A stretch of DNA of 41,670 bases, from positions 1 to 41,670 of the forward strand of contig JANXWY010000271.1 in the NCBI GenBank assembly GCA_025350905.1. Reading direction: 5' to 3'. This DNA is from Verrucomicrobiota bacterium. GTDB lineage: Bacteria > Verrucomicrobiota > Verrucomicrobiia > Limisphaerales > JADLHS01. The notes under the pieces were generated by a model. That model was not told the DNA's origin. It did not search any database and saw nothing but the letters and a program-made list of their open reading frames with translations. Of the stretch, positions 22,589-41,246 are shown in pieces. A program made the position numbers and the translations under genes. Positions within the stretch are counted from its first letter, which is position 1, and every line of letters begins with the position of its first letter.

Positions 22589-22790
22589 GCCCGCCCTCAC
22601 CCGCGCCCTCTCCCCCGCGGAGAGGGAGAGCAAAGGTGCGTTTATTGAATGTTCGATCGCTAATTTGGCGGTCTTCGCGTTTTCCGCGATTTTGTAATAC
22701 CGAGTCCAACCAACGTGCGCACCCACAATGCAAAAGGACTGGCGGTAATTCTCCCTCTCCCGGGGGAGAGGGTCGGGGTGAGGGTGGGCG
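22588..22790. repeat. REP-like paired palindrome, family A copy 2, in the decahaem cytochrome leader
   Basis: Arms at 22588-22629 and 22751-22790 are inverted copies of the CCCTCACCC...CCCTCTCCC type, each with an inner CTCTCCC/GGGAGAG hairpin. The left arm touches the GTG start codon of the decahaem cytochrome, so the repeat forms most of the 288-base gap to the beta-barrel gene. The GGTGAGGGCGGGC edge supplies the only purine-rich sequence near the start codon. Confidence 0.8.
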
Positions 22791-22876
22791 TTTATTCCGA
22801 CGTTTCGTCGCCAATCAAAACGAACTACTGCAGGTTGGCTGCTGCAAAGGAGTTTTGGACGGCGCATTCGCATGGT

Positions 22877-25219
22877 TCAATAGGTAAGTGTGATGGCGAT
22901 CAATCCGCTGTAAAGAAAATCATCCACCTGACCGCGTTGATCCGTGCGGTCGAACCCCGCCACCAGATCAGTGTTGGACTGGTAAATATCCTTGAAACCC
23001 CGGCTGGGCAGCAGCACGCCAAAGCCCGTCGAGATAATGATATTATCCGTCAGCAACGGACGGTATTGAAAGCCGATGCTCAAGTCCCAGCCGATTTGAT
23101 TGGCCGCGGTGTCCGTCATCAAGGCGGTCTTGATCGTGGCCGTATCCGCGAGGCTGATATAGTTGGCGTTGACGAATGAGCGCAACCGGGGAGTGAGTTC
23201 GACTTCCGCGCCGAGGCCGAGGATGTAAACGCCCGGATTGACGAAGTTGGATTGACCTTCGGTTTTGCTCGAGCGCAGATTCGGCACGAGACTGTTGCGC
23301 TGTTTCAAATTCACCGAGGTGCCGCCCAGATTGAAGCCTTGGCGCGCCCAGTAACTGAACGGACCGCCGGTGAAATTGGGATTGTCGAGAATCGTGTCGA
23401 ATCCGGTGCCCCGACTGTCTTCGGAGTTGTGATCGCCCGAGGCGTAAAAGAAAGACGTCTTGTAGCGGATCCAATCGCGGTCGTACGAAACCTCGAGCGC
23501 GGCCATCTGCGCGTTGATGTCCACCGGTTGACCGGCGAGGCCGTTGAAATCGTCATGGCCGAACACCTCGTAAAACGCGTGAGAGACATTGACGCGGCCG
23601 ATGTGGCCGTCGCCCGCCCACCCGAGATAATAGGCATTCACATCGTGGGGGCGGACCGTGCCGATGGGCTCGGGCCGGACGAGGTTGCCGTTCTCGTCAT
23701 AGTGTACGCCGCCGTGGTCCAGGCTCGCCTGGAAGCTCCATTCCGCCGTGTATCCCTCCCACAGAAAATCCTGCCAGTAGAAATTGGCGATCACCACTTC
23801 CTGGTCCCGCGCATCGAACGTATTTAATTCGGAGTTGGTGTCCTTCTCGCGCATGTCAAACCCGGCGACATTGTATTGGAAACGGTTGTTGTCCCAGTTG
23901 CCGAAAAGCCGCGCGCCAAGATTAATGTCGTTGAAGATAAATCCGCGGAAGTCGGAGTTGAACGGCTGCAAGCCGACGCGCGCGGCCAGGAAATCATAAT
24001 TGTCCGAGAGATCGCTCAGGTGGATTTCACCGAACGCCTGTTGCAAAGCAAAAAAAGTATCAGTGCGCACGGTGTTCTTCTGGCCGCGAAAGCTGCCCGC
24101 TGTACCGACCTGACCATTGAGCAGGGTGTCGATATCGCCGGGATTTAGCACGTAACCGTTTCCGGGTGGTGGCGTGTTATTATTGCCACCCAACGGGCCG
24201 CGTGGGTCGGGGGAAACCACGCCGGTTTCTTTCGAATTCAGGTAGTTGACATTGAACACCGGCTGCAGCTTGATTGCCCAGCCCACCGGCTTGAACGCCG
24301 TTTCGCCTTCGAACAATTCCGCGGAAAATGCCAGGTAATTCTGGATGCCAATCTGTTCGCTCTCGCCGTAAAATTGATACTCGCCCGGCACCGCGGTGCT
24401 CACGCCACTGGCGGTCGGGACGCGGCGGAACTCGACCACGGTTTCCGTCGAGGCCGTCAGGTTCAAAAAAATGTCCTGGCCGATCAATGGCACGTCGCCC
24501 TTGAGCACACTTTGCCGATACGGCCGCCAGAGCATCGGTTCGGGCGTTTCGTACGGCTGCTCGATTACGCCGCTCGTGTATCGCTTCCACGGCACGAAAC
24601 CGATGCGCCAACGGTCGGGGCGCGGTTGAGTGTTGGTCGGATAATCCTCCGGCCACGGCAACGAGGTATACTCCGGCAGCTGGAAGTTTGGTTGGATTTT
24701 CAAATTGCCCCGTATGTCTTCGCGCGGCAGTGCCTGATCCGGCGGCAGCGGCTCTAAACCGAAACTGCCCGGCGCCGTTGATTGTGGCGAAAGGATCTCG
24801 CCTTGGCGCAAATCGGAACGGGGCAAGGCGAGGTCCGAGGGCACGGTCGGCGGAGTAAAGGTTGGCCAGGGCAGGGGATCGGTGCGGAACAACGGAACTG
24901 ACGGCGACATCGATGGGGACAGACCCGCTCCCGGATCGGGATTGAACGCCGGCGGCGCGGCGGGCGGGGTATTGGTACTGATGGAAACCCGGCGCGACCA
25001 GTTCGTCGCCGGCGGAAGATTGGTGGGAAGAATCAGCGGGTTAGGATCAGGATTAAAGGTGGTGGGTGGCTTGGGCGCCGGGCCGGGACTGATCGCTTGG
25101 TAGGGTTTGAGCCGGTTGGGATCGTTGGTTTCCGCCATGCCGATGCTGGACAAAAGCAGAAGCCACAGCCCCGCAAAATAAATTCCAGACGGTCGAGGCT
25201 GGTTTTCCCACAGAGACAT
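22877..25219 (-). CDS. Putative outer-membrane beta-barrel (porin-like) protein beside the decahaem cytochrome
   Basis: The protein has 780 residues from ATG 25219. A signal peptide (IYFAGLWLLLLSSIGMAE) leads to a Pro-rich region of about 150 residues (SPGPAPKPPTTFNPDPNP, TNLPPATNW). The rest has alternating amphipathic strands and ends VDDFLYSGLIAITLTY, with the C-terminal aromatic typical of barrel proteins. Segments such as FLAARVGLQPFNSDFRGF, RFQYNVAGFDMR and EVELTPRLRSFVNANYISLAD fit barrel strands. There is no CXXCH motif. I cannot place it in a named family. Because it precedes a large decahaem cytochrome on the same strand, a porin-cytochrome conduit partner is plausible. TTG 25255 is an alternative start but ATG 25219 gives a better signal peptide. 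Confidence 0.7.
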   Translation of the reverse strand: MSLWENQPRPSGIYFAGLWLLLLSSIGMAETNDPNRLKPYQAISPGPAPKPPTTFNPDPNPLILPTNLPPATNWSRRVSISTNTPPAAPPAFNPDPGAGLSPSMSPSVPLFRTDPLPWPTFTPPTVPSDLALPRSDLRQGEILSPQSTAPGSFGLEPLPPDQALPREDIRGNLKIQPNFQLPEYTSLPWPEDYPTNTQPRPDRWRIGFVPWKRYTSGVIEQPYETPEPMLWRPYRQSVLKGDVPLIGQDIFLNLTASTETVVEFRRVPTASGVSTAVPGEYQFYGESEQIGIQNYLAFSAELFEGETAFKPVGWAIKLQPVFNVNYLNSKETGVVSPDPRGPLGGNNNTPPPGNGYVLNPGDIDTLLNGQVGTAGSFRGQKNTVRTDTFFALQQAFGEIHLSDLSDNYDFLAARVGLQPFNSDFRGFIFNDINLGARLFGNWDNNRFQYNVAGFDMREKDTNSELNTFDARDQEVVIANFYWQDFLWEGYTAEWSFQASLDHGGVHYDENGNLVRPEPIGTVRPHDVNAYYLGWAGDGHIGRVNVSHAFYEVFGHDDFNGLAGQPVDINAQMAALEVSYDRDWIRYKTSFFYASGDHNSEDSRGTGFDTILDNPNFTGGPFSYWARQGFNLGGTSVNLKQRNSLVPNLRSSKTEGQSNFVNPGVYILGLGAEVELTPRLRSFVNANYISLADTATIKTALMTDTAANQIGWDLSIGFQYRPLLTDNIIISTGFGVLLPSRGFKDIYQSNTDLVAGFDRTDQRGQVDDFLYSGLIAITLTY

Positions 25220-25412
25220 TGCCGGGATGAGAGTTTTTTTGATCCAAGAAATCAAGCGCTTCCTCTGCGGCCAGAGCGAATCTAAGGGTTGGTTAATTTG
25301 GAAGATAGCTCTGGTAGTGCGACGTGACGGGTGTAGTCCGGGCCGCCTGAGCCGCCGTCCAAGCTGGTGAGCGGGCCCGGTGGCATTTCCACATTGGTTT
25401 CACAGCCCGCGT

Positions 25413-25529
25413 CTTGGACTGCGGGGGCAAGCGCAGCGCGACCCCGCTTTTGGTGAGGGTTGAACCAGCCAACCTCGCCAGTCTTCTGAAAGCGCCGTCG
25501 CCGCTGCGCTCAGCCGGCGCACTCCAAAG
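25413..25529. repeat. REP-like paired palindrome, family B copy 1
   Basis: The left arm (25413-25453) reads TTGGACTGCGGGGGCAAGCG and onward; the right arm (25489-25529) is a diverged inverted partner ending GCGCACTCCAAAG. A second copy of the family is at 31196-31320. The repeat lies in the 629-base gap between the divergent barrel and GlcG-like genes. Confidence 0.65.
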
Positions 25530-25636
25530 CGGAGAGAGAAAGCCCGTTCGATTGGCCGTCCTCGAATACGCGTCGCTTCCCGTCGCACTTCTTTGGGTGC
25601 GATTAAATACGGGTGAGGGAAGGGTGGATTTTCTCC

Positions 25637-25747
25637 GGAGCGCGGACGGTCCCTCGTCCGCAGCCGTGCGCTACGCTAAAGCGCGCCGCAAGGCTCGATG
25701 CGCGCCGGTCTGGCCACGCGCTGCGAGCGAGGGACCGCTCGCGCTCC
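25637..25747. repeat. REP-like paired palindrome, family F, with compensatory stem changes
   Basis: Two 28-base inverted arms (25637-25664 and 25720-25747) match at 24 positions. The four differences are paired: one arm has stem GCGGACG/CGTCCGC, the other GCGAGCG/CGCTCGC. Both keep a full hairpin around GTCCCT. With the family B element next to it, repeats account for much of the stretch 25220-25848, in which I see no gene. Confidence 0.75.
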
Positions 25748-25848
25748 GTCAGATAGCCTCACCCGACTTTGATCGCACCCCACTTCTTTTCCTCCGCAGG
25801 ATTAGACTTGCGGAATTCCGCTTCTCCTCTGAAATACCCGGAACGACT

Positions 25849-27420
25849 GTGAACCGAACTGCCCTCACGATTACCCTGGCTTTGCTGACGGCGACACTTC
25901 GTGCCTCTGCGCAACTCGCCTTGGCCGACGTGCAACAGGTCATCGCCCAGGCCGCCACGCGCGCAAGTCAAATCTCCACCAATAGCGTCATCGCCGTCAC
26001 GGACCGCGAGGGCTACGTGCTCGGCGTGTGGAGTGTGAACGGGACGACACCCGTCACGAGCGCCTTCACCGGACTAGTGGCCAACGCCATCGCCAAGGCC
26101 GGCACCGCCGCGTTTCTGAGCAGCGGTCAAAACGCTTTTACCACGCGCACGGCCGGCTTCATCGTACAGCAAAACTTCCCGCCCGGCGTGCTTAACAAAG
26201 CGCCCGGCCCGCTCGTAGGGGTCAACTTTTCCAATCTGCCCTTCACCGATGTCAACCGGCTCAAGGACCCGGCCACTTACAGTCCGGCACTGACGAACGG
26301 GCTGAACGGCGGGCCCGTGCCCACGCCGATCACCGGTGGCTTGGCTGGCACCCCGGGCGGCGTGCCGCTCTACCAGGGGGGCAAACTCGTGGGCGGGGTT
26401 GGTGTCGTCGGCGACGGTGATGGCCCCTTCGACATCACGCCGCAATCCATCGCGAATCCGGACGTGGACGAGGACGTGGCGCTCGCCGGACAAATCGGAT
26501 TCGCGCCGAGTCCACAAATTTTTGGCTCTCAGGTGACGATTGATGGCATTCGGCTGCCCTACGTTTCCAGCAGCACCAGTCTGCCGGTCGTTGCTCCGTT
26601 CGGCAGCATCGGTGTCAACTACGCTGCGTTCCCGCTCACCGCCGGCCCGGGCCCGATCAATTATCCGTCGCTCTCTTTGGGTGGCGTGACGGGTGAATTG
26701 CGAAACCCGATCATCAGCGATCCGAGCGGGGTTTTGCTGCCCGGCGGCACCGCGCGACTCACGGCCGCGGAAGTGACCAACATCCTCGCGGCCGCCGCCA
26801 ATCGCGCCCGCACCACCCGGGCCGGCATCCGCCTGCCGCGGGGTCAGGCGGCCCAGGTTTTTATTTCCGTGGTCAACAATCCCAACCTGGCCGGCAGCCC
26901 GCCGGTAATCCTGGGTTCATTCTGCACTTCGCCGGATACCACGCGCTTCAGTTGGGATGTCTCGGTGCAAAAGGCGCGGACGGCGCTGTTTTTTTCCGCG
27001 ACCAACCGCGCCTACTCCGCGCGCACGGTGGGTTTCCTCGCGCAAAGCCTCTATCCGCCCGGCATCAGCGCGACGCAGCCCGGCTTGTTCTTCGGATTGC
27101 AGGAACGGTTTTCCATCATCACGCCGACGGCGATCGTGGCCACCAACCCCGTCAACGGCGCGGTGTTCACCACTTCCACCAGCGTGAATCCCAACCTGCC
27201 CAACGGCCTTACGATATTTCCCGGCGGCTTTCCGTTGTATCGCAACGGCGTGGTGATTGGCGCGGTGGGTGTGAGCGGCGACGGGATTGATCAGGATGAC
27301 CTCATCGCGGCGAGCGGTGCGTCCGTGTTTCCATCAGCGGAAGCCATTCGTGCCGACCGCACGCAATATCGCGGGGCGCGCTTGCCTTACGCGAAATTTC
27401 CGCGCAATCCGGCGTTGTGA
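25849..27420 (+). CDS. Secreted protein with two GlcG/HbpS-like domains
   Basis: The 523-residue protein starts at GTG 25849, which follows GGAA by 5 bases and begins a clear signal peptide (ALTITLALLTATLRASA). Two copies of a GlcG/HbpS-like (PF03928, haem-degrading/haem-binding) fold follow. The first is at about 20-230 (LADVQQVIAQAATRASQ, AVTDREGYVLGVW, KAGTAAFLSSGQNAFTTRT). The second is at about 300-520 (AAEVTNILAAAANRARTTRAG, VQKARTALFFSATNRAYSART). Each repeat ends with a GGxPLYxxGxxxGxxGVxGDG motif typical of the family. Known members bind haem, cobalamin or small ligands, and many are uncharacterised. Its place beside cytochrome genes makes haem-related function attractive but unproven. 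The open frame extends to 25414 through two repeats; that part is not counted. Confidence 0.8.
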   Translation: MNRTALTITLALLTATLRASAQLALADVQQVIAQAATRASQISTNSVIAVTDREGYVLGVWSVNGTTPVTSAFTGLVANAIAKAGTAAFLSSGQNAFTTRTAGFIVQQNFPPGVLNKAPGPLVGVNFSNLPFTDVNRLKDPATYSPALTNGLNGGPVPTPITGGLAGTPGGVPLYQGGKLVGGVGVVGDGDGPFDITPQSIANPDVDEDVALAGQIGFAPSPQIFGSQVTIDGIRLPYVSSSTSLPVVAPFGSIGVNYAAFPLTAGPGPINYPSLSLGGVTGELRNPIISDPSGVLLPGGTARLTAAEVTNILAAAANRARTTRAGIRLPRGQAAQVFISVVNNPNLAGSPPVILGSFCTSPDTTRFSWDVSVQKARTALFFSATNRAYSARTVGFLAQSLYPPGISATQPGLFFGLQERFSIITPTAIVATNPVNGAVFTTSTSVNPNLPNGLTIFPGGFPLYRNGVVIGAVGVSGDGIDQDDLIAASGASVFPSAEAIRADRTQYRGARLPYAKFPRNPAL

Positions 27421-31423: not shown

Positions 31424-33505
31424 TCACTTCGCCTCCATCTTCCAAATGCCCTTCCACTCCGCTGGCGGCGCGGCGGCGAGTTCGGCGCAACGGGCGGCCA
31501 GGGTGCGGCTCGCGCCGTCGGCAAAATCTTCGATCAGCTTTTCAAACCGCACCTTCGCTTCGGCGAAGCGGCCAAAAAAATAGTCGTCGTAGGCGGCCTT
31601 GTAGCGCTGGCAAAGTTCCGGGTACTTGGGCGGCGTGCAGGGATTTTCGCATTCGTACAATTCCACCGGCTCGGTCTTGCCCTTCACGATGACGCGGTCC
31701 AGCAGTCGCCGTCCGCCTTGTTGACTGAGTTGCGCGAGCACGTCGCGGGAGACGAGCAGCTTCACGCCGTAATATTTGGTCAGAGCCTCGATCCGTGCGG
31801 CCTCGTTCACCGTGTCGCCCACAAGGCCGTAGTCGAGACGCAACGCCGAACCTTTGTTGCCGACGAGCACGCCGCCGCTGTGCAGGGCGACGCCATAGCC
31901 GAACAGCTTCTGCACTTCCGGAGATAGTGTCGCGCGGAGCGCTTCCATCGCAGTAATTAATTTAAGCGCGGCCCGTTCCGCGCGGTCGGCGGAATCGGGT
32001 TGCGGCCGCGGCGCGCCCCAATAGCTGAGGAATTGGTCGCCGAGAAAATGCTCCAGGTTGCCTTCCTCGCCCATGATGGCTTGGGTCTGGACTTCGAAGA
32101 CGCGATTAAGCAACTCAAACATGCCTTTCGGTCCGAGCGACTCGGCGAGCGGCGTGGAGTTGCGCAAATCGGTGAGGAGCAAGGTTACGTCGGCGCGGCG
32201 CGGCTCCATCGAGCCAGGATCGGCCAGTACCGCTTCGAGCACACTCGGAGAAAAATAGAGGCCCATCGTGTGCCGGAGCTTCACCCGTTCGAGTCGTTCC
32301 AAAACAAAATCGTAGGCAAGGACGGTGAGGCTGCTCACGACCAGAACCACCAAGGGGACGGCGATGGGAAGGACCAGCCCGGCGTGGTCAAAGAGCAATT
32401 GCGCGAACAGTCCGTAGCCGACGGTCAAGCCCACGACGCTCAAAAAGCGTTTCCCGGGTTGGCGTAGAATAAAACACAACGCTCCAGCGATTACCCCGGA
32501 CAGGAGGATGATGAACAGACTGGCCACGATGGACGGTTCGCGTGGAAATTCCCCATGCAACGCGGAGTTGAGCAGGTTGAGATGGATTTCCGGACCAGAC
32601 ATGGGTTTCGGATCGGTGAAGGGGGTGTTGTGTTCATCGTGAAAAATGGCCGCGGTGGGACCGATGAGAACTATTTTATCCTTAAAATCTCGGCCATTGG
32701 CGTGGGTCTTTTCCCAAAGCCTCGGCGATAGCACCTCGCCAATTGGAACGGGTTGGTAGCCGAAACCGGGCGGCGCCGTGTATCGAAAAAGGCGCTGGTC
32801 AAATCGGGGCGGGATGAGGTCGGGCCGGCCAAACTTGCGCAGCGCCCGGGCGTCCAGCGATTCGAGCGTCACTTCCGGCGGCACGACGTCGCCCACTTGT
32901 GCGCCGGTTTGGCGGTAACTCATCCGGCGCAACGTGTCGTCGAAATCCGGCCAGATGTTGACGTAGCCGAGCCGGTCATCTTCCACCGCCGAATTCGTTC
33001 CCGCCGGCGACAGGATCCCCGCATGTGGCAAGAGCAACTCACTGAAGTTTCCGCGCTCCGTTTTTCCCGCGCTGAGGTTGTAGCCGATGACGACGCGGTC
33101 CCGGTATTTATCCAGGGCGAGTTGGAGTTCCGCGTCGCCATCGGCCGGCGCGGCGAAGACAAGGTCGAAGACGATGACTTTGGCCCCGGCGGCGGCGAGC
33201 TTCTCGATCAACCGCGCCCAGACGGCACGCGACCAGGGGAAATTATTCTGCAGGTGCCGCAACACGGGCTCGCGTTGCAGCTCTTCATCGCTGAAATCCG
33301 ACAGGTAAACCGGCTTGTCGACGCCGATCAGGACCAGTCGGTCGTCCACGGGGTTCTTGCGTCCCAGGCGCGTCTGCCAGTCCTGCGCGAAGAACTCCAT
33401 CTGCTGCAACGGTACAAAGCCACGGCGCCACAAGCCGAGCATGCCCAGTGTGCAGACCGCGCAAATGATCAGAATGATGACCGGACGTTTGGTGGTGGGT
33501 TTCAA
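31424..33505 (-). CDS. CHASE2-domain class III adenylate/guanylate cyclase
   Basis: The 693-residue membrane protein has an N-terminal helix (9-26), an extracytoplasmic CHASE2 sensor (about 35-320; LVLIGVDKPV, AAAGAKVIVFDLVFAAP, FKDKIVLIGPTA), three helices (about 325-400), a class III cyclase domain (about 435-620) and a short TPR-like tail. Both metal-binding Asp are present (D446 in LLLTDLRNST, D490 in FLGDQFLSYWG), as are D558 in LDYG and the transition-state pair N567 and R571 in GDTVNEAAR. The Lys that normally reads the purine two or three residues before the second metal site is His486 (LEHFLGD). So cyclase activity is plausible but nucleotide choice or rate may differ. ATG 33505 starts the frame. 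A FecR-domain gene is divergent, a pairing seen in other bacteria. Confidence 0.9.
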   Translation of the reverse strand: MKPTTKRPVIILIICAVCTLGMLGLWRRGFVPLQQMEFFAQDWQTRLGRKNPVDDRLVLIGVDKPVYLSDFSDEELQREPVLRHLQNNFPWSRAVWARLIEKLAAAGAKVIVFDLVFAAPADGDAELQLALDKYRDRVVIGYNLSAGKTERGNFSELLLPHAGILSPAGTNSAVEDDRLGYVNIWPDFDDTLRRMSYRQTGAQVGDVVPPEVTLESLDARALRKFGRPDLIPPRFDQRLFRYTAPPGFGYQPVPIGEVLSPRLWEKTHANGRDFKDKIVLIGPTAAIFHDEHNTPFTDPKPMSGPEIHLNLLNSALHGEFPREPSIVASLFIILLSGVIAGALCFILRQPGKRFLSVVGLTVGYGLFAQLLFDHAGLVLPIAVPLVVLVVSSLTVLAYDFVLERLERVKLRHTMGLYFSPSVLEAVLADPGSMEPRRADVTLLLTDLRNSTPLAESLGPKGMFELLNRVFEVQTQAIMGEEGNLEHFLGDQFLSYWGAPRPQPDSADRAERAALKLITAMEALRATLSPEVQKLFGYGVALHSGGVLVGNKGSALRLDYGLVGDTVNEAARIEALTKYYGVKLLVSRDVLAQLSQQGGRRLLDRVIVKGKTEPVELYECENPCTPPKYPELCQRYKAAYDDYFFGRFAEAKVRFEKLIEDFADGASRTLAARCAELAAAPPAEWKGIWKMEAK

Positions 33506-33616: not shown

Positions 33617-34429
33617 ATGAATATGAAACTGCCTCTCGCCGGGTTGCTCGTTGGCGTCAGCGTGACGGCCTTGGCCGCAGCGTCGCTGACGGAAAGCACT
33701 TTTACCGAAATCATCAAGGATGCGAAAGTCGTGGCGGCCACTACCAAGAGTGCCACGCCCGCCCAGACCAACGAGGTATTCCGCGTGCCGGATCTGGTGC
33801 GGACCGGTCCCGATTCCCGCGTCGAAATGACCGCGCCGGACAATACCATTACGCGCATCGGGGCGAATACCGTCTTCACGTTTGAGCCATTGGAAAGAAC
33901 CATTCAGCTCAAGAAGGGCAGCATTTTGTTTCATGCCCCGGCCGGCGCCGGAGGCGGATCGATCAAGTACCATGGCACGGCCGCGGCCGTGTTGGGGACG
34001 ACGATAATTTGCACGGTCCTGCCCGACGGCAGTTTCAAAACCCTGGTGCTCGAAGGCCAGGGTCAGGTGACGTTGCGGGCGGGATGGGCGGTTACCTTAA
34101 ACGCAGGAGAAATGCTCATCGTGCGGCCAGACGGAAATGGTTTTGGTCCGGTGATGATCTTCGGTCTGGAGGATCTCGTGTCGCGTTTGCAGTTGGTTAA
34201 CGGGTTTTCGCACCCGCTATCCTCCCTGCCGCTGATCGCCGCGGCGATTCAGCAACAAAACCAACAGATTGCCGCGGGGAACCTGGGGCCGATTACATCG
34301 TGGGAAGTGGCGGGCAAAGGGTTTGGGACGTCGGCCGGAAACGGGCAAGCAAACGGCCTGCCCCCCTTTTTGGATCTCCGTAATCTTGGGCGGGAGTCAG
34401 TGTCGCCTTCTTCCCCAGCTCAACCTTGA
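33617..34429 (+). CDS. Secreted FecR-domain protein next to a CHASE2 cyclase
   Basis: The 270-residue protein has a signal peptide (LPLAGLLVGVSVTALAAAS) and a FecR-like domain at about 45-165. The recognisable segments are LVRTGPDSRVEMTAPDNTITRIGANTVFTF, LKKGSILFHAPAG and HGTAAAVLGTTI. There is no N-terminal anti-sigma domain and no TonB or sigma-factor partner nearby, so it is not a classical FecR regulator. The tail after about 190 is Gln- and Gly-rich with low complexity. In other genomes periplasmic FecR proteins sit beside CHASE2 cyclases, so it may bind a ligand or the CHASE2 sensor; that is inference. ATG 33617 has GGAG five bases upstream. The gene converges on the decahaem gene, whose stop is 63 bases away. 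Confidence 0.85.
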   Translation: MNMKLPLAGLLVGVSVTALAAASLTESTFTEIIKDAKVVAATTKSATPAQTNEVFRVPDLVRTGPDSRVEMTAPDNTITRIGANTVFTFEPLERTIQLKKGSILFHAPAGAGGGSIKYHGTAAAVLGTTIICTVLPDGSFKTLVLEGQGQVTLRAGWAVTLNAGEMLIVRPDGNGFGPVMIFGLEDLVSRLQLVNGFSHPLSSLPLIAAAIQQQNQQIAAGNLGPITSWEVAGKGFGTSAGNGQANGLPPFLDLRNLGRESVSPSSPAQP

Positions 34430-34492: not shown

Positions 34493-36181
34493 CTATTTCG
34501 TGTCCTTCCGGTGATACCCGTGGCAAGTCGCACAGGAATCCACCACGCCGCCCCGTGGGCTGTGGCAGGTCACGCAGGAATCTTTGGTGGGCAGGATTAC
34601 ATCGGCCGTGGCTTGGCTCGTCGCTGCGGAATGACATTTGAGGCAGGCCACGCCGGAATGTTTGGCGTGATTAAATGCGCCATGCACCAGCCAGCGATCG
34701 AGAAGAATTGGCTTCGTAATTTCGGGCTGGCCCTGCGCACCGGCCTGCACCTCGTGGCAGTAGGCGCAACCGGGATACGGTGGATGGGTGGCGCCGATCA
34801 CAGAGCCAACTTGCACGGAGGGCCCGGTCGTCGCGGTGCTGAAAAACACTCGCTGCTCAAAAGTTTCTCCCGTGGCCACCCGCGTCTGCCAGCGTTGCAG
34901 TTTTTCCTGGGCGAATTGATTCTGCTCGGCCGTGCGCGTGATGCCGGAGCGCGCCGCGAGATCGGCGTATTGCCGGGGCAAGCTGTGGAGGAAGGCGGAA
35001 ACCAAAGCGGGATTGCCGTGCGGTAAAGTGAGCGCGGGAGTTTCGGGATCAAATTGGAGCGAGTGACAGACCTGACAGTGTCGCTCAAAATTGATCCGCC
35101 GAAAATAGCTGCCCGCCACATCGGGCTGATGACACGAGTTGCAATCGAGTTTGCGACCGCCGGGCAGTTGCGGAATCGTTTCGCTCGTGAGGTGCCGGGC
35201 ATGGTTGAATTTAAGGGTGTCCGGATCGACCAGTTTATCGGTATGAACGCGAAATTCCGGGTGATCTTGCGCGAAGCTGTGGATGACCTGCGTGAAGCCC
35301 GTGGCGGTACGTGAATCGGTTGCCGTTTCGGTTCGCTTCAAGGCGGAACTCGGCATGGACCCTGCCGCCAACGCGCTCTCGGATGCCGGTGGCAAGCTCG
35401 CGCCTTTGATAGCCGCGGCGGCCATGACGCCGGCATCCCCGTGACAAATTGTGCAGTGCGCATCCGTGGGCGCCGCCATCGGTCCGGTGCCGCGATGTTC
35501 CGCATGGCAAAAAGAACACGAAAGGTCCCGGACCACACTGGGCTGATGCAGCCGATGGTTTGGGTGACATTTCTGGCAGGACGCATCCAGGGCGGTCGGC
35601 TCGCCGGGTCGGGCCCGCGCGAGCTGGCCGAGTTGAAACGGACCGGGAGTGGCAGCCCAGGCGGTGGCGACCAGGTCACTCGGTCCGCGTGCCCCCGCCG
35701 GGTGGCAGGCGGTGCAGGTTTGATTCGCCTGGTTGGTGCCGGAGTGAAGCAAGGCAAAGGCGGCGCTGGAATGCGGCGTGGAGAGCGCGCCGGAATTGAT
35801 GAAGGTGCCGCGCCACGAACCGCCCAAACCAATTAACAGGAGCGCGACGGTTGCCGCCACCACGGCACGGGTGAGTTGTCCCCGGCGCGTGCGCAGGGTC
35901 GGCACGGGTGAACACCGGGCAATCGGCCGGCAACAACTGCCATCGGGTCGCGGGCCCGATTCGCAGACGCCGCCGGAGCGAGTGCAACGCCACCGACCTT
36001 TTGTTTCGCCGGGCTTTATTTCCAGCACCGGCGTGCATTCCGCCGTCGCGCAGCAGCGGCCGCGGTGGTCCGGTCCGAGTCGGCAGGGCTTGCCTTCCCC
36101 CGCGTGACCACAGATCCAGCCTTGATTCGGTCGCTCATAGCTTTGCGCGTCGAAACCCGGCGCCGGCAATTGCTCGCTCAT
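34493..36181 (-). CDS. Membrane-anchored decahaem c-type cytochrome with a cytoplasmic Cys-rich head
   Basis: The 562-residue protein has three parts. Residues 20-92 form two Cys repeats, C-x8-C-x9-CC-x4-C (C24-C49) and C-x6-C-x9-CC-x5-C (C66-C90), each with a conserved GP. A basic stretch (RTRRGQLTR) precedes one helix (104-122), placing the head in the cytoplasm. The rest is outside and carries ten CXXCH motifs: CTACH, CQKCH, CSFCH, CTICH, CNSCH, CQVCH, CAYCH, CLKCH, CVTCH and CATCH. Ligand His are frequent, including FNHARH and FNHAKH typical of cytochrome c3/c7 folds. It should pass electrons from the membrane cytochrome b-like partner to external or periplasmic acceptors. ATG 36181 overlaps the preceding stop by four bases (ATGA), so it is the last gene of a coupled operon. 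Confidence 0.9.
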   Translation of the reverse strand: MSEQLPAPGFDAQSYERPNQGWICGHAGEGKPCRLGPDHRGRCCATAECTPVLEIKPGETKGRWRCTRSGGVCESGPRPDGSCCRPIARCSPVPTLRTRRGQLTRAVVAATVALLLIGLGGSWRGTFINSGALSTPHSSAAFALLHSGTNQANQTCTACHPAGARGPSDLVATAWAATPGPFQLGQLARARPGEPTALDASCQKCHPNHRLHQPSVVRDLSCSFCHAEHRGTGPMAAPTDAHCTICHGDAGVMAAAAIKGASLPPASESALAAGSMPSSALKRTETATDSRTATGFTQVIHSFAQDHPEFRVHTDKLVDPDTLKFNHARHLTSETIPQLPGGRKLDCNSCHQPDVAGSYFRRINFERHCQVCHSLQFDPETPALTLPHGNPALVSAFLHSLPRQYADLAARSGITRTAEQNQFAQEKLQRWQTRVATGETFEQRVFFSTATTGPSVQVGSVIGATHPPYPGCAYCHEVQAGAQGQPEITKPILLDRWLVHGAFNHAKHSGVACLKCHSAATSQATADVILPTKDSCVTCHSPRGGVVDSCATCHGYHRKDTK

Positions 36182-36996
36182 CGCGCACCTCCCGCAAAGG
36201 CGAACACCAGCACGACGTGCAGCACTGAGCAAATCATCAGGCTGTAAGTCAGCGGCAGATGCACGAACAGCCAGAGCTTCAGAGTGGTTTGGAGCGCGTG
36301 GTGATAATCCAACCCGTCCTTTTGCCGCACCACTTGCGTAAGTTTATCCAGCGTCGCCTGCTCCGACTCGTTGAGAAAACGGCGCAGGTCTTCCAGCTCG
36401 CTCAACAAGGCGTTCAGCGGGCGGCGCGAGTCGAGCAGGTGCGGCCAGAAATTGCGGGGCCCGGCGAGGAAACCGCTCAACTGCCGGACGTAAAATTCCG
36501 CGATCGTCGGCGAGGGGGTTTCGCCCCCGAGCGCCAGTGCCTCCGCCGTCTCCCGCAGCGCATGGCGGAGCGCGGGAATTTTTTCGTAGATTACTTCGCC
36601 CCCGCGGGTCGCCAGCCGACGCGGCAGCACGCGACTCAGCAACAAGCCCGCGATGCCGCTCCCCGTGACCAGGGCGTAGAGCCAGGCCAGCGTGCCCTCG
36701 AACCACCCGGTGGGCAGGCGGAAGTTCAGGTGAATCAAAAACAGCACGACGGTGAAAAACCCGGCGTAGATGTGCAGCTGGGCCCAGGTTTCCGAATGGC
36801 CGAGCGGCAGAAAGGGCAACCGTTTGCGCGCGTTGTAGAGCGCCAACAAAAACATGGCCACGAGCAGCACCCAGCCGGTGAGATAAGCATAATGGGGCAA
36901 CTGCCGGCTCCAGCGGCAATGGATCATGATGGCCAGGACGCTGGCGACCAACAGTAGAAAACTTCCCAGAAAAAACTGGCGGCGAAAACGGTTCAT
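36178..36996 (-). CDS. Dihaem cytochrome b-like membrane protein
   Basis: The 272-residue protein has five hydrophobic helices (about 8-25, 38-55, 74-92, 103-122, 242-268). Two of them carry a His pair 14 residues apart: H75/H89 in LHIYAGFFTVVLFLIH and H246/H260 in VHLPLTYSLMICSVLH. That geometry fits two b-haems held by helices 3 and 5, as in cytochrome b561, NarI or ferric-reductase-like proteins. A soluble, charged loop of about 110 residues lies between helices 4 and 5. I infer that it moves electrons through the inner membrane, from the ferredoxin subunit or quinol to the decahaem cytochrome. It overlaps both neighbours by four bases (36993-36996 and 36178-36181). An open frame to 37113 exists, but ATG 36996 is clearly the start. 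Confidence 0.8.
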   Translation of the reverse strand: MNRFRRQFFLGSFLLLVASVLAIMIHCRWSRQLPHYAYLTGWVLLVAMFLLALYNARKRLPFLPLGHSETWAQLHIYAGFFTVVLFLIHLNFRLPTGWFEGTLAWLYALVTGSGIAGLLLSRVLPRRLATRGGEVIYEKIPALRHALRETAEALALGGETPSPTIAEFYVRQLSGFLAGPRNFWPHLLDSRRPLNALLSELEDLRRFLNESEQATLDKLTQVVRQKDGLDYHHALQTTLKLWLFVHLPLTYSLMICSVLHVVLVFAFAGGAR

Positions 36997-38729
36997 CGCT
37001 GCATCCAGTCCGCCAGCGCGGTCAAGTCGTTCAAGTTGATGCGCTCCAGCGCGCCGTGGGGACAGGCGCGTTGACAGGCCGGGCCACCGTGATTCTCCAC
37101 GCACAGATCGCACTTGGTCGCCTTGCTGATCGGTTTGTGGTCCTCGCCCACCATGAATTCACCGCGCGGGTCGCGGACGTCCACCATGCGAATCGCGTCG
37201 TACGGACAGTTGTTCGCGCACGCCTTGCAGCCGATGCAGGTGGTGGGATTGATCACGACCTGGCCGGCGAACGACTCGCGATGAATCGCGCCCGTGGGAC
37301 AGCCAATCATGCAAACGGGATCCGCACAGTGCATGCAGGCATTGGCGATCATCAGGCGGCCGCTGGTCGGCCCGTGCCGGAGAAAGCGGGGGTTGTTGTC
37401 GTGGGTCGCGGCGCACGCGCGCACGCAATCATCGCAACGGGTGCAGCGATCCAGATCAATCACCATGGTGGCCGTCCCGTTAAAGAAGCGGTTCGCGGTG
37501 AGAAACTCCAGCGTGTCCGCGCCGATCCGGTCCCGCGCGCCACTGGGGACCGGTCCCGCGGGCGGGGCGGGGCGGGTTTCCGCCGCCGGTGACAGCAGCG
37601 GGGGTAATTCGCTCTTGGGCAGGCTGGGCAGGACGATTTGCTCCATCACGTTCGTTGGCACGATGAGCAAATGGGTGTAGCCGATGCCGCGGAGCGAGTA
37701 TTGCAAATTCACCGGCGCCTGCGGCTGCTGAAAGTTGTGCGCAATTTCGTCGAGGCCGAATAACTGGCCCGCGCCGATGTAATTCAGGGTGCGCTCGCCC
37801 TGGCCGAATTTCTGGCTCACGCGCGCAAAGCCGGCGCGGAGCAGCACCACGCCGTTTGGGTAATCGCCTTCCTGAACGATCACCGGCTCCTTTTCCGGCC
37901 GCCCGCCGCCGCTTTGCGCGAGGCGTTTGTATTCGCCCGACCAGTCGTAATCGCCGTAGGTGGCAAATTCAATCTGGGCGGCGACCTGATCGAGTTGCTC
38001 CTTCGTGAGGTATCGAAACAAAGGCGTAGCGCGCAGATAGGACGCCAGTGCGCGTTCGCGGTAAATCCGATTGATGTGCTGGCGCAGTTGATCATCTGCG
38101 CGCATCAAGTCGCGCAAACCCTGCCAGCGGATTTCCAGCAACTCCGCCGTGTCGCTGGCGGCAAAAATCGTCGAGGTGCGCGGCATGCGGCTCAAGGCGG
38201 CAATTTCGCCGAAGAAATCTCCTGCGGCCATTTCCTCGGTGCGATGCTGGTCCAGCACGCGCGGCAGATCCTGGAGGAAAACATGCACCTCCTGGTTTTC
38301 ATTCTGGCGGGCGCCGACGCCCGCGTTGGGCCGCAGTTGCGCGCGCTGGAAACTTTCCGGCGGCCGGCGGCCCCCCCAGAGTTGCGCGAGCGTGCGGAGA
38401 ATTCCCTTCTTCACCGGCGCCTGCCGGCCGAGCAGCGCCGGCGCCAGGTCCGGCTTCAGCACGACCCGCGTAGTGCCGGACAAGATCAGGAAGGCCGAAG
38501 TGCCGTAGTCGCCCTGGCGCGTGATGATTTCCCCTTGGCGATAGCGCCGGATGCTGGTGTCGTGCCGTAGAATCTCCCGCAGCGGCGTGCGTTTGGGAAA
38601 GTTTTCCGGCGCCATTTGGCTAAACGGAGGAATGGCGAGCAGCCGTTCCACGTCGGCCTCGGTCATGGCGGGATCGAAGGCCGCGTCCCAGCGTTGCGGG
38701 CGTTCGATGGATGGCGGGGTAGGCGGCAT
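36993..38729 (-). CDS. Two cyclic-nucleotide-binding domains fused to a four-cluster [4Fe-4S] ferredoxin
   Basis: The 578-residue soluble protein joins sensing and electron transfer. The first cNMP domain (about 30-215) has the cassette FGEIAALSRMPRTSTI with E175 and R184, so it may bind cAMP or cGMP; it also has an unusual insert of about 60 residues (97-160). The second (about 235-365) is degenerate (FGLDEIAHNF, no Arg). After a Pro-rich linker, residues 425-565 carry sixteen Cys for four [4Fe-4S] clusters, with spacings C-x2-C-x2-C-x3-C (429-439), C-x2-C-x4-C-x3-C (465-477), C-x2-C-x2-C-x3-C (498-508) and C-x2-C-x8-C-x3-C (540-556), as in DmsB/NrfC/HybA subunits. There is no signal peptide. 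It starts 9 bases after the oxidoreductase stop and overlaps the cytochrome b-like gene by four. It looks like a nucleotide-gated electron carrier; gating is inference. Confidence 0.9.
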   Translation of the reverse strand: MPPTPPSIERPQRWDAAFDPAMTEADVERLLAIPPFSQMAPENFPKRTPLREILRHDTSIRRYRQGEIITRQGDYGTSAFLILSGTTRVVLKPDLAPALLGRQAPVKKGILRTLAQLWGGRRPPESFQRAQLRPNAGVGARQNENQEVHVFLQDLPRVLDQHRTEEMAAGDFFGEIAALSRMPRTSTIFAASDTAELLEIRWQGLRDLMRADDQLRQHINRIYRERALASYLRATPLFRYLTKEQLDQVAAQIEFATYGDYDWSGEYKRLAQSGGGRPEKEPVIVQEGDYPNGVVLLRAGFARVSQKFGQGERTLNYIGAGQLFGLDEIAHNFQQPQAPVNLQYSLRGIGYTHLLIVPTNVMEQIVLPSLPKSELPPLLSPAAETRPAPPAGPVPSGARDRIGADTLEFLTANRFFNGTATMVIDLDRCTRCDDCVRACAATHDNNPRFLRHGPTSGRLMIANACMHCADPVCMIGCPTGAIHRESFAGQVVINPTTCIGCKACANNCPYDAIRMVDVRDPRGEFMVGEDHKPISKATKCDLCVENHGGPACQRACPHGALERINLNDLTALADWMQR

Positions 38730-38738
38730 TTAAATCAA

Positions 38739-40043
38739 TCAGGCGTCGAGGACCAAATCGCCTTTCGGGCGGCAAATGCAAGTCAGACAGGCCCCCTGTT
38801 CGGGTTCCGCGTCCGGCGCTTTCAAGTAATCCACGGCGCCGGATTTGATGGCGACGAGGCAGGAGCCGCAACTGCCGGCGCAGCAACCCGAATCAATCCG
38901 CACGCCCTGGGCCTGGGCAAATTCAAGCAGGTTCCCCGCGGACGGCTCCCAGCGGACGGTTTTGCCCGAACGCGCGAACGTGACCTGCAGTTTGGCCAGA
39001 AAAGCGGTTTCGCTGGCGGTCGGCGCGGCGGTTTTTTTCTTCACCGTGGCGGGACCGAACGCCTCAAAGTGAACCTCCTTCTCCGGCACGCCCCAGGCCT
39101 CCAGCCCGTCCGTGATGCTTTTCATGAAGGCCCCGTTGCCGCAGAGGTAGTACTCAAAATTGTTCGAGGGCAGGATTTCCTTCAACCGTTCAATGCCGAC
39201 CCGGCCTTCGTGATGATAGTCGCGGCCGAGGATATCGTTCGTGCCGGGTTTGCTGTAACAGACGTGCAAATGAATGTTGTCATTTTCGGCCGCGAGCTTT
39301 TCCAGTTCGAGTTTGTGGATGTGCTCGCGTTGGTTCCGGACGCCAAAGAAAAAAAACACCTCGCGTTTGGTCCCGCTGGCGGTAATCGCGTTGGCCATGC
39401 ACAACATGGGCGTGATCCCGACGCCGCCGGCAATGAGGACGACCGGATTCGACTTGGTCATGTCGAGGTAGAAATGCCCGGTCGGCGCCTTGACGTTCAG
39501 AATATCGCCCTCCTTTACCACCTCGGCGAAGTAACTCGAGCCCGCGCCCGGCGGCAATTCTGGGCGGTCCGGCGGTGCTTTCTCCTGCTTGATGGTGACG
39601 CGATAATAATCCGAGCGGTGCGGACTCTCCGACAGGGAATAGCAACGCACCAGCGGCTTGTCGCGGCCCGGGAGATCGAGTTGGAACGTGAGATATTGGC
39701 CCGGTTTGAATGCCGGCAACGATTTGCCGTCATGCGGTTTCAAATAAAAGGCCCAGACATCGTCGCACTCGCGGGATTTCCGGGCGACGGCGAATTTCCG
39801 ATAGCCGTTCCAGTGTAATTTGCCTTGTTCCGCCTCCTGACACCGGAGTTTGGCCGCTTGCACTTGCAGCTGCAGTTTTTCCAACGCGGCCCGATGCTGG
39901 GCGCGTTCGGCGCGGAGCCGTGACGCCCCCCGAATAATTGCGAGGAGAATCTGGAGCAGCAGTGCCCCGACGATGAGCAACCCTAGGGTCAGACCGAGCT
40001 CGCCCCTGGCGAGAATACGCAGTTTGTCAAATAGGGGTTGCAT
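38739..40043 (-). CDS. Membrane-anchored FAD/[2Fe-2S] NAD(P)H oxidoreductase (NqrF-like)
   Basis: The 434-residue protein has an N-terminal helix (17-37) and a coiled-coil-like stretch (40-75). A ferredoxin-NADP reductase module follows: FAD site RCYSLSESP (133-141), NAD(P)-binding AGGVGITPM (205-213) and YYLCGNGAF near 300. The C-terminal plant-type [2Fe-2S] domain has C387-x4-C392-x2-C395 and C422 in CLTCICRP. NqrF has the same parts but with the ferredoxin domain first, so the order here is different and closer to Hmp- or PDR-type reductases. It should oxidise NAD(P)H at the cytoplasmic face and hand single electrons to the cNMP/ferredoxin protein encoded next. It is the first gene of the minus-strand redox operon. 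ATG 40043 is only 30 bases from the start of the divergent cytochrome. Confidence 0.9.
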   Translation of the reverse strand: MQPLFDKLRILARGELGLTLGLLIVGALLLQILLAIIRGASRLRAERAQHRAALEKLQLQVQAAKLRCQEAEQGKLHWNGYRKFAVARKSRECDDVWAFYLKPHDGKSLPAFKPGQYLTFQLDLPGRDKPLVRCYSLSESPHRSDYYRVTIKQEKAPPDRPELPPGAGSSYFAEVVKEGDILNVKAPTGHFYLDMTKSNPVVLIAGGVGITPMLCMANAITASGTKREVFFFFGVRNQREHIHKLELEKLAAENDNIHLHVCYSKPGTNDILGRDYHHEGRVGIERLKEILPSNNFEYYLCGNGAFMKSITDGLEAWGVPEKEVHFEAFGPATVKKKTAAPTASETAFLAKLQVTFARSGKTVRWEPSAGNLLEFAQAQGVRIDSGCCAGSCGSCLVAIKSGAVDYLKAPDAEPEQGACLTCICRPKGDLVLDA

Positions 40044-40073
40044 CAGAGCTGCGTCTCAATTAACAAAACCAAC

Positions 40074-41246
40074 GTGCGGCGTAAATCACTTAGTTGCCGG
40101 GCGCCGGGCGCGAGCGTTCTGGTTAGTCTCATCGCCGCGGGATTATCCCTGGTCGGTTCGCCATTGCCGGGCGCGGAAACCATTTCGACCAACCGATTTC
40201 TGGGCACTGCTACTTGCTCCAGCTCCGGCTGTCACGGCGGGGGCGGACCCACGCAGAATCAATTTCTCGTGTGGTCGTTGCGGGATGTGCATGCGCAACG
40301 ACCCGCGGCCACGCTCACCACCGCGCGGTCCAGGCAAATCGCCGACGCGCTGCAAATCAACGACCCCGCGGCGGACCTCCGTTGCACCACCTGTCACGCC
40401 CCGTTGCAGGCAGTTCCCATCGCTAGTCGCGGCGAAACTTTCTCCGCCGGTGAAAGTGTTTCGTGCGAGAGTTGTCACGGGCCGGCGGAAAACTGGTTGC
40501 GTTCCCACACGCGGCCGGATTACACCCACGCCGACCGCACGGGCGCCGGGATGCGGGACCTGAAAAATCTCTACGTTCGCGCCAATACCTGTGTCGCCTG
40601 TCACCAGACGGTGGTCCCCGCGCTGCTGCAGGCGGGCCACCCGGAGTTAATCTTTGAGTTGGACGGCCAGAGTGTCGCCCAGCCCAAGCATTGGCGGGAG
40701 AGCGCCTCGGGTAGCGGCGCGCAGATGTGGTTCGTCGGTCAGGCCGTGGCTCTGCGCGAATTAAGCTGGCAACTGGCGGGCGAGCCGGCGTCGAATGAAA
40801 AACTCGCCGCCCGTTGGAGTGCGCTGCTGTGGTTGCTCCAAAAGCTGGACGGGCTCGGCCCCGAGTTCTCCACCTTGAGCGGGTGTTCCGCGGAGCCCGC
40901 TGGCCAAAACCTGCGCGTGACATTGACGGCGTGTGATGAACTGGCGAAGCGGGTTGCTGGCCTTTCCTGGACGGACGAAATGTCGCGCCGGGCGCTGGCG
41001 ACCCTGAGTGCCACGGCCGATGATTTCCAACGACCGGGCCTGGCGATGAATTATCAGGCGCGTCGGGCCGAACGGTTGGTCCTGGCCTTGGATCGGTTGC
41101 TGAGCTCGCGCCGCAATCTTCCGCCGAACCGCGAAGTGGACGCAAACTTGAATCGCCTGTTCCGGCTGGCCCAGTCACTTCCCGAGTTTAATGCCCTGGC
41201 CTTCGCGGAGGCGTTGAATGCATTCTCAAAATCGCTGAGCCCTTGA
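40074..41246 (+). CDS. Secreted tetrahaem cytochrome c554-like protein
   Basis: The 390-residue protein begins at GTG 40074 with a signal peptide (ASVLVSLIAAGLSLVGSPLPGA). Its first 150 residues contain four haem motifs: an unusual CSSSGCH (CX4CH, C48-C53), CTTCH, CESCH with HGPAENW behind it, and CVACH. FLGTATCSSSGCHGG, SVSCESCHGPAENW and the free His residues between motifs match the cytochrome c554 family, known from hydroxylamine oxidation and from multihaem electron transfer in many phyla. The last 200 residues are helical, rich in Leu, Ala and Arg, with no haem motif. It is divergent from the redox operon and probably shares its electron path. TTG 40038 in the same frame is an alternative start, but it would overlap the neighbouring start codon. 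Confidence 0.85.
   Translation: MRRKSLSCRAPGASVLVSLIAAGLSLVGSPLPGAETISTNRFLGTATCSSSGCHGGGGPTQNQFLVWSLRDVHAQRPAATLTTARSRQIADALQINDPAADLRCTTCHAPLQAVPIASRGETFSAGESVSCESCHGPAENWLRSHTRPDYTHADRTGAGMRDLKNLYVRANTCVACHQTVVPALLQAGHPELIFELDGQSVAQPKHWRESASGSGAQMWFVGQAVALRELSWQLAGEPASNEKLAARWSALLWLLQKLDGLGPEFSTLSGCSAEPAGQNLRVTLTACDELAKRVAGLSWTDEMSRRALATLSATADDFQRPGLAMNYQARRAERLVLALDRLLSSRRNLPPNREVDANLNRLFRLAQSLPEFNALAFAEALNAFSKSLSP

What the first reader, a model, noticed from the sequence alone, without database searches (positions are those of the whole stretch)
34493..41246. Complete NAD(P)H-to-decahaem electron path in one coupled operon
FAD/[2Fe-2S] reductase, four-cluster ferredoxin, dihaem b-type membrane protein and decahaem cytochrome follow in the order that electrons would travel. 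Gaps are 9, -4 and -4 bases. A tetrahaem c554-like gene is divergent. I do not know a named complex with this exact set, so it may be an undescribed transmembrane oxidoreductase for respiration of external or periplasmic acceptors.
Basis: partly seen in the sequence, partly recalled or inferred. Interest (0 to 1): 0.85.

Follow-up and report, generated by a model that had tools for sequence, protein, structure and literature searches.

The report
Cyclic-nucleotide-linked NADH-to-cytochrome electron conduit
A conserved set of bacterial genes appears to carry electrons from a cell-internal fuel across the membrane to a chain of haems, and one of its parts looks built to sense a cyclic nucleotide signal, which could make it a switchable electron outlet.

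Summary
In detail: four genes, gaps (9, -4, -4), haem counts and divergent tetrahaem gene are as described. The set is not unique: memB follows cnbFd in 76 of 76 named loci with room, decahaem cytX in 69 of 69, in several phyla. Nor is it nameless: it fits the predicted 'PCC4' subgroup II of He et al. 2017 (PMC5566968). The window holds a verrucomicrobial variant (one clade) whose genome lacks the PCC4 porin and a full-length pentahaem gene; instead it has an AlgE-like outer-membrane barrel and a decahaem LVIVD-propeller cytochrome, 9 kb away here, in the same operon elsewhere.

The 'ferredoxin' carries cyclic-nucleotide-binding domains with E175 and R184 in 108 of 108 rows. Class III cyclases lie beside the operon in 9 of 50 loci against 1.0 expected. 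The decahaem protein has a cytosolic eight-cysteine module in 96 of 99 rows, absent in a branch that also lacks the flavoprotein.

Best reading: a regulated, NOX-like outward NAD(P)H-to-haem electron valve. Identity is well supported; direction, outer-membrane passage and gating are inferred. New variant of a known kind.

The parts
38739..40043 (-). flavR: membrane-anchored FAD/NAD(P)/[2Fe-2S] reductase (ferredoxin-NAD(P) reductase type), 434 aa
   Evidence: Pfam PF00970, PF00175, PF00111; hydrophobic segment at residues 19-37; in the locus in 33 of 33 type I and 26 of 27 type II loci with more than 2.8 kb upstream
36993..38729 (-). cnbFd: cyclic-nucleotide-binding plus four-cluster [4Fe-4S] protein, 578 aa. 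Domain 1 has a complete phosphate-binding cassette; domain 2 looks degenerate
   Evidence: PF00027 1.4e-22, several Fer4 models including PF13247; E175 and R184 108 of 108 rows; 16-Cys pattern 102 of 107
36178..36996 (-). memB: five-helix membrane protein, two b haems expected, 272 aa
   Evidence: W71/H75/H89, G114/G117, W242/H246/H260 invariant in 29 of 29, S113 in 28 of 29; whole motif by strict regex in 92 of 106; segments
34493..36181 (-). cytX: decahaem c-type cytochrome with cytosolic Cys8 module and a single TM anchor, 562 aa
   Evidence: 10 CxxCH; TM residues 103-121; PF14522 and PF14537
35882..36178 (-). cytX residues 2-100: double Cys4 module ahead of the TM helix, candidate metal site(s)
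   Evidence: regex 96 of 99 cytX, the 3 misses being type III; no Pfam match, no NCBIfam match, no PDB sequence or fold match
40074..41246 (+). divergent c554-like tetrahaem cytochrome (start probably GTG 40074; ORF list gives TTG 40038)
   Evidence: PF13435 3e-9; four haem motifs; divergent in 33 of 33 type I loci
22877..25255 (-). OMP: outer-membrane beta-barrel, about 18 long strands, AlgE-like, with a low-confidence Pro-rich N-terminal region
   Evidence: AlphaFold2 mean pLDDT 55; Foldseek to AlgE 7acg E 1.9e-10, TMt 0.51; next to LVIVD in the loci
18590..22873 (-). Exported decahaem cytochrome with LVIVD beta-propeller repeats (start uncertain; homologues begin about 100 residues further in)
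   Evidence: 10 CxxCH; PF08309; co-occurs with memB in 14 genomes, Fisher P 2.2e-10, kinship not corrected
31424..33505 (-). CHASE2 class III nucleotide cyclase, candidate source of the signal
   Evidence: PF05226 and PF00211; metal-binding Asp and N/R motifs present
33617..34429 (+). FecR-domain protein next to the cyclase; membership in the system uncertain
   Evidence: PF04773; FecR cluster in 8 of 80 named loci
25414..27420 (+). HbpS-like protein divergent from OMP; start and membership uncertain
   Evidence: PF03928 4.7e-17; homologues near OMP or cytX in L159, L158 and an HbpS-like gene near the operon in L093

Best explanation
It is a verrucomicrobial variant of the PCC4 subgroup II electron-transfer cluster. 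The likely path: NAD(P)H reduces the FAD of flavR, then its [2Fe-2S], then the four [4Fe-4S] clusters of cnbFd, then two b haems of memB across the inner membrane, then the ten c haems of cytX (and the tetrahaem protein) in the periplasm, and finally the OMP/decahaem-LVIVD unit at the outer membrane. A cyclic nucleotide made by a nearby class III cyclase binds cnbFd and opens or closes the path. Shown by sequence: composition, order, motifs, conservation, association of the outer-membrane pair. Inferred: cofactor loading, direction, passage through the outer membrane, and gating. Outward flow of electrons from NADH without proton pumping drains the membrane potential, as in NADPH oxidases, so a tightly regulated valve for excess reductant fits better than an energy-conserving chain.
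For: Domains; gene order 76/76 and 69/69; memB motifs; cytX type I and II homologous, hhalign 100%; type I one clade inside type II; memB and LVIVD co-occurrence 14 shared of 16 and 15 in 57 genomes; OMP and LVIVD directly behind cytX in L051-L055; invariant cNMP-contact residues; cyclases of different sensor types near the operon, 9 of 50 loci against 1.0 expected; flavR found in none of 4 type III genomes, whose cytX also lacks the Cys8 module.
Against: No biochemistry. OMP is predicted as an 18-strand barrel, narrower than the 26 strands recalled for MtrB, and its model is weak (mean pLDDT 55), so a haem wire through it is unproven. 12 of 30 type I loci with more than 5 kb after cytX have no LVIVD gene in the locus. 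41 of 50 loci have no cyclase nearby. memB could be quinone-active, as He et al. propose. cnbFd domain 2 lacks a clear cassette. Whole memB motif missed by strict regex in 14 of 106.
Confidence: 0.6

Rival explanations
1. Inward path: electrons from an outside donor such as Fe(II) enter through the outer membrane and reach the quinone pool via memB, as He et al. hypothesised for PCC4.
For: PCC4 was found in Fe(II) oxidisers and modelled this way (PMC5566968 section 16 legend); a Mariprofundus MAG carries the set (L119).
Against: flavR and the four-cluster protein link to NAD(P)H; NAD+ reduction by Fe(II) along this path would be uphill in both redox and charge (inference). Many type I hosts are freshwater or soil Verrucomicrobiota not known as lithotrophs (record titles).
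Confidence: 0.18
2. Quinol-linked version: memB takes electrons from menaquinol and flavR/cnbFd is a side entrance or a reductase for a cytosolic partner.
For: Type III clusters keep cnbFd, memB and cytX without flavR, so electrons can enter by another route there; b-type H-x13-H proteins can be quinone-active (He et al.).
Against: flavR is in 33 of 33 type I and 26 of 27 type II loci with enough upstream sequence. No quinone site was tested.
Confidence: 0.2
3. The LVIVD decahaem protein is a periplasmic or surface reductase for a specific dissolved acceptor, which the AlgE-like barrel lets in; no electron crosses the outer membrane.
For: OMP model resembles the exporter AlgE and other substrate channels; LVIVD matches are 69-89% identical across the order, more like an enzyme than a wire; weak partial match to ExtM of selenite/tellurite reduction (52 bits against a cut-off of 800).
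Against: LVIVD protein has ten haems and no recognised catalytic domain; no PDB sequence match.
Confidence: 0.27
4. The cyclic-nucleotide-binding domains are structural only; the nearby cyclases have unrelated roles.
For: Second domain has no clear cassette; 41 of 50 loci have no cyclase in the locus; some associated loci are close relatives.
Against: E175 and R184 108 of 108; enrichment remains in genomes with at most five cyclases: 7 loci against 0.19 expected.
Confidence: 0.3

Closest known systems
PCC4 subgroup II (He et al. 2017, PMC5566968; predicted, not characterised)
   Same: IMP with five TM helices, SGXXG and two WX3HX13H motifs; PF13247 Fe-S gene upstream of the IMP gene; tetrahaem and decahaem cytochromes; redox genes upstream of the tetrahaem gene. 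My type II loci add porin k6 and pentahaem k7, matching the paper's 4, 5 and 10 haems.
   Different: In the window's type I the tetrahaem gene is divergent and the PCC4 porin and full-length pentahaem protein were not found in the genome; an OMP without detectable homology (hhalign 1%) plus a decahaem-LVIVD protein take their place. The word 'cyclic' occurs 0 times in the paper's main text.
Porin-multihaem system of freshwater Verrucomicrobia (He et al. 2017, PMC5615132)
   Same: Same phylum; also in strain IMCC26134.
   Different: The paper describes an octahaem next to a porin. IMCC26134 has such genes at 2.59 Mb (498 aa 7-haem, 269 aa 8-haem, 763 aa without haem), apart from its PCC4-like cluster at 2.41 Mb. 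That these are the paper's genes is my inference.
NADPH oxidase / ferric reductase (NOX, FRD PF01794)
   Same: NAD(P)H, FAD, two b haems on H-x13-H helices, outward flow (recalled; the FRD resemblance is stated).
   Different: No Pfam match of memB to PF01794 at E 0.01; Fe-S clusters and c haems added; acceptor is a cytochrome, not O2.
Hmc / DsrMKJOP / Qrc transmembrane complexes of sulfate reducers
   Same: Four-cluster Fe-S subunit joined to membrane b-type or NrfD subunits and a periplasmic multihaem cytochrome (recalled). cnbFd scores 35 bits to HmcB and 54 to DsrO.
   Different: Far below cut-offs (420 and 200); no NrfD or HdrD-like subunit found in the operon.
MtrCAB with CymA
   Same: Multihaem chain to an outer-membrane barrel (recalled).
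   Different: Quinol-fed in Shewanella (recalled); window OMP profile has no match in the PDB sequences at E 1.

Membership tests
PCC4 subgroup II | IMP with five TM, SGXXG, two WX3HX13H | tested here: met
PCC4 subgroup II | Fe-S (PF13247) gene upstream of the IMP gene | tested here: met
   PF13247 2.3e-9; order
PCC4 subgroup II | Tetrahaem and decahaem cytochromes, redox gene(s) near the tetrahaem gene | tested here: met
   tetrahaem gene is divergent in the window, in line in type II
PCC4 subgroup II | Porin and pentahaem cytochrome of the cluster | tested here: not met
   Type II porin gives no match in G000; pentahaem protein gives only a 163-residue 31% match inside a 976-aa frame. G000 is 95.5% complete. 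So the window is a variant, not a plain member
PCC4 subgroup II | Sequence similarity to the proteins He et al. used | not tested
   Their accessions were not fetched; supplements could not be read
Verrucomicrobial porin-MHC (PMC5615132) | Octahaem periplasmic cytochrome next to a porin | tested here: not met
   OMP neighbours have 10 haems; a separate octahaem/porin-like locus exists in IMCC26134
NOX/FRD | Match to PF01794 or fold | tested here: inconclusive
cNMP-regulated protein | Intact phosphate-binding cassette (Glu, Arg) | tested here: met
   E175, R184 108 of 108 rows, G174 108 of 108
cNMP-regulated protein | Ligand binding and functional response | not testable with these tools
   -

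The most novel reading that the evidence does not exclude
A cyclic-nucleotide-gated electron valve: a multi-phylum transmembrane NAD(P)H oxidase whose Fe-S subunit has fused ligand-gated domains, driven by neighbouring cyclases with different sensors, feeding exchangeable outer-membrane cytochrome units, with an undescribed cytosolic eight-cysteine redox module on the decahaem subunit that docks the flavoprotein.
Probability: 0.3. Interest if true: 0.85.

Novelty: new variant of a known kind. Interest (0 to 1): 0.6.

Why it matters
Inner-membrane entry into outer-membrane cytochromes is usually described as quinol-fed (recalled). Here a widespread module seems fed by NAD(P)H and possibly switched by a second messenger, which would turn extracellular or periplasmic electron disposal into a signalled response. 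It also offers testable partners (cyclase, cnbFd, Cys8 module) and a case where the same inner-membrane module is joined to two unrelated outer-membrane units. Named organisms in the loci, such as Hwanghaeella grinnelliae, IMCC26134 and Candidatus Uabimicrobium amorphum, could be used.

Tried and rejected
Plain ferredoxin: rejected, cnbFd has cNMP-binding domains. Unique to this genome: rejected. Same as the verrucomicrobial octahaem porin cluster: rejected on haem counts and separate locus. Type I OMP as a diverged PCC4 porin: no support (hhalign 1%). LVIVD as a diverged pentahaem protein: weak (57% over 105 columns). Known fold for the Cys8 module: none, best Foldseek E 4.3 and best PDB profile hit E 0.18. 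Strict Cys8 regex first matched 78 of 99; the relaxed one 96 of 99; the 66 rows of A2 were chosen with that regex, so the invariance of the eight Cys in A2 is partly built in. Paper searches with no relevant hit for cyclic nucleotide binding plus multihaem; LVIVD plus multihaem. NCBIfam and PDB searches of single genes gave only general relatives.

Full report
What is there. The window is contig C184 of a 6.27 Mb, 489-contig genome; the nearest named relative is a Limisphaerales MAG, 89% identical in cnbFd. On the minus strand lie flavR (38739-40043), cnbFd (36993-38729), memB (36178-36996) and cytX (34493-36181), with gaps of 9, -4 and -4 bases, and a divergent tetrahaem gene. Pfam gives FAD, NAD and [2Fe-2S] domains in flavR and both cNMP-binding and Fer4 domains in cnbFd; it gives nothing for memB, and multihaem models for cytX and the tetrahaem gene. 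memB has four His invariant in 29 of 29 homologues in two H-x13-H pairs and about five hydrophobic segments. cytX has a cysteine-rich N-terminus, one hydrophobic segment at 103-121, then ten CxxCH.

How conserved. memB was found in 16 of 57 relatives and cnbFd in 12 of 288 genomes drawn from the phylum at E 1e-30; a distant cnbFd (type III) query found 68 of 320 genomes of the order at E 1e-20. memB follows cnbFd on the same strand in 76 of 76 loci with room, cytX in 69 of 69.

Two main types. Type I (window; 38 of the 69): tetrahaem gene divergent in 33 of 33 and flavR in 33 of 33 loci with more than 2.8 kb upstream. Type II (31): flavR in 26 of 27, tetrahaem gene in 23 of 27, never divergent, with a further about 5-haem protein (k7) and an about 508 aa protein without a Pfam match (k6) in 22 loci each. 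In the quick cnbFd tree type I lies in one clade of 60 rows (58 type I, 2 undetermined; SH-aLRT 99) inside type II, next to mostly Planctomycetota rows. Some genomes carry both, for example G033 and G028. Type II proteins k6 and k7 match strongly in G033, G028 and G182 but not in eight of the other nine tested genomes for k7 beyond weak partial hits in G000 and G017, and in none of those nine for k6; G178, a type II genome, lacks both.

What it matches. He et al. 2017 (PMC5566968; [quoted passage not shown] My type II loci fit this. The window shares the inner-membrane and periplasmic half: cytX type I against II hhalign 100%, tetrahaem 99.4%.

The outer half is different. In L051-L055 the type I operon runs straight on into an OMP gene and a decahaem-LVIVD gene; the window has homologues of both 9 kb downstream on the same strand. 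LVIVD occurs in 15 of 57 relatives and memB in 16, 14 shared; the exceptions are G020 (57% complete) and G006 and G047, which have other cluster forms (Fisher 2.2e-10, kinship not corrected). Where LVIVD is unlinked, OMP still sits beside it (L156, L157, L159-L163). Within 5 kb or more after cytX, OMP is in 19 of 30 and LVIVD in 18 of 30 type I loci, and in 0 of 23 type II loci. OMP is modelled as about 18 long strands (mean pLDDT 55.0) with AlgE as best PDB match (E 1.9e-10, TMt 0.51). OMP shows no homology to k6 (1%), LVIVD little to k7 (57% over 105 columns).

The cyclic-nucleotide link. In 108 aligned cnbFd rows (with some duplicates) G174, E175 and R184 of domain 1 are invariant and T185 is Thr in 88 and Ser in 11; Glu and Arg are the ribose and phosphate contacts of this cassette, and Thr after Arg recalls cGMP-type sites (recalled). 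A strict cassette regex matches 98 of 107. Domain 2 lacks a clear cassette. The window has a CHASE2 cyclase at 31424-33505. Six cyclases near other operons proved to have different sensor parts: CHASE2 (L102, L122), 7TMR-DISM (L106), GAF (L118), Tll0287-like (L103) or none named (L125). Against PF00211 counts in the whole genomes of 50 loci, 9 loci hold a cyclase where 1.02 are expected (P 1.4e-6); in genomes with at most five cyclases 7 against 0.19 (P 1.5e-9). CHASE2 itself is common in relatives, 129 matches in 57 genomes, and 41 of 50 loci show no cyclase, so the link is enriched, not obligatory.

The Cys8 module. Two repeats of four Cys precede the cytX TM helix in 96 of 99 rows. The three exceptions, and a fourth locus seen later (L158), belong to type III, with distant cnbFd and memB and a type I-like cytX and tetrahaem gene. 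flavR gave no match at E 1e-20 in 4 of 4 type III genomes (two of them 83% and 73% complete) but did in 6 of 6 other genomes that I chose. Joint absence suggests that the module works with flavR. AlphaFold2 gives mostly coil (pLDDT 79.3, pTM 0.48) and no PDB fold match.

How it most likely works. NAD(P)H to FAD to [2Fe-2S] (flavR), to [4Fe-4S] (cnbFd), to b haems (memB), to c haems (cytX, tetrahaem), to the OMP/LVIVD unit. Electron flow from NADH to the outside without pumping is downhill and drains the potential; the reverse to NAD+ would be uphill twice (inference). That favours a regulated valve over Fe(II) oxidation, though quinone use by memB remains open.

Literature seen. PMC5615132: passages and section 12; its octahaem-porin cluster seems to be a separate locus in IMCC26134. 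PMC6344600: passages. PMC6295460: one passage by term search, with 0 occurrences of NADH and of cyclic. All other papers: listings only.

Verdict. Real, conserved, and a new variant of a predicted cluster; the cyclic-nucleotide and Cys8 features are, in the searches named, not described in the main texts seen.

Noticed in passing
window 28596-30848: ABC transporter fused to a C-terminal cNMP-binding domain, between the OMP/LVIVD pair and the main operon.
   Followed up: no
window 25414-27420: HbpS-like (haem degrading protein family) gene divergent from OMP; homologues near OMP or cytX elsewhere.
   Followed up: partly
L154 7423-12271: IMCC26134 locus with a 498 aa 7-haem protein, a 269 aa octahaem protein and a 763 aa protein without haem, fitting the verrucomicrobial porin-MHC of PMC5615132.
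   Followed up: partly
L080, L072, L131 and other records: MAG titles such as Klebsiella pneumoniae, Akkermansia muciniphila and Asaia bogorensis on contigs whose cnbFd groups with uncultured lineages: titles look mislabelled.
   Followed up: no
L062 (G177:C1): cnbFd split into two adjacent frames and memB shortened, while the same genome has an unsplit cnbFd on another contig.
   Followed up: no
L038/L045 (G033) and L036/L048 (G028): Genomes with both a type I and a type II cluster.
   Followed up: partly
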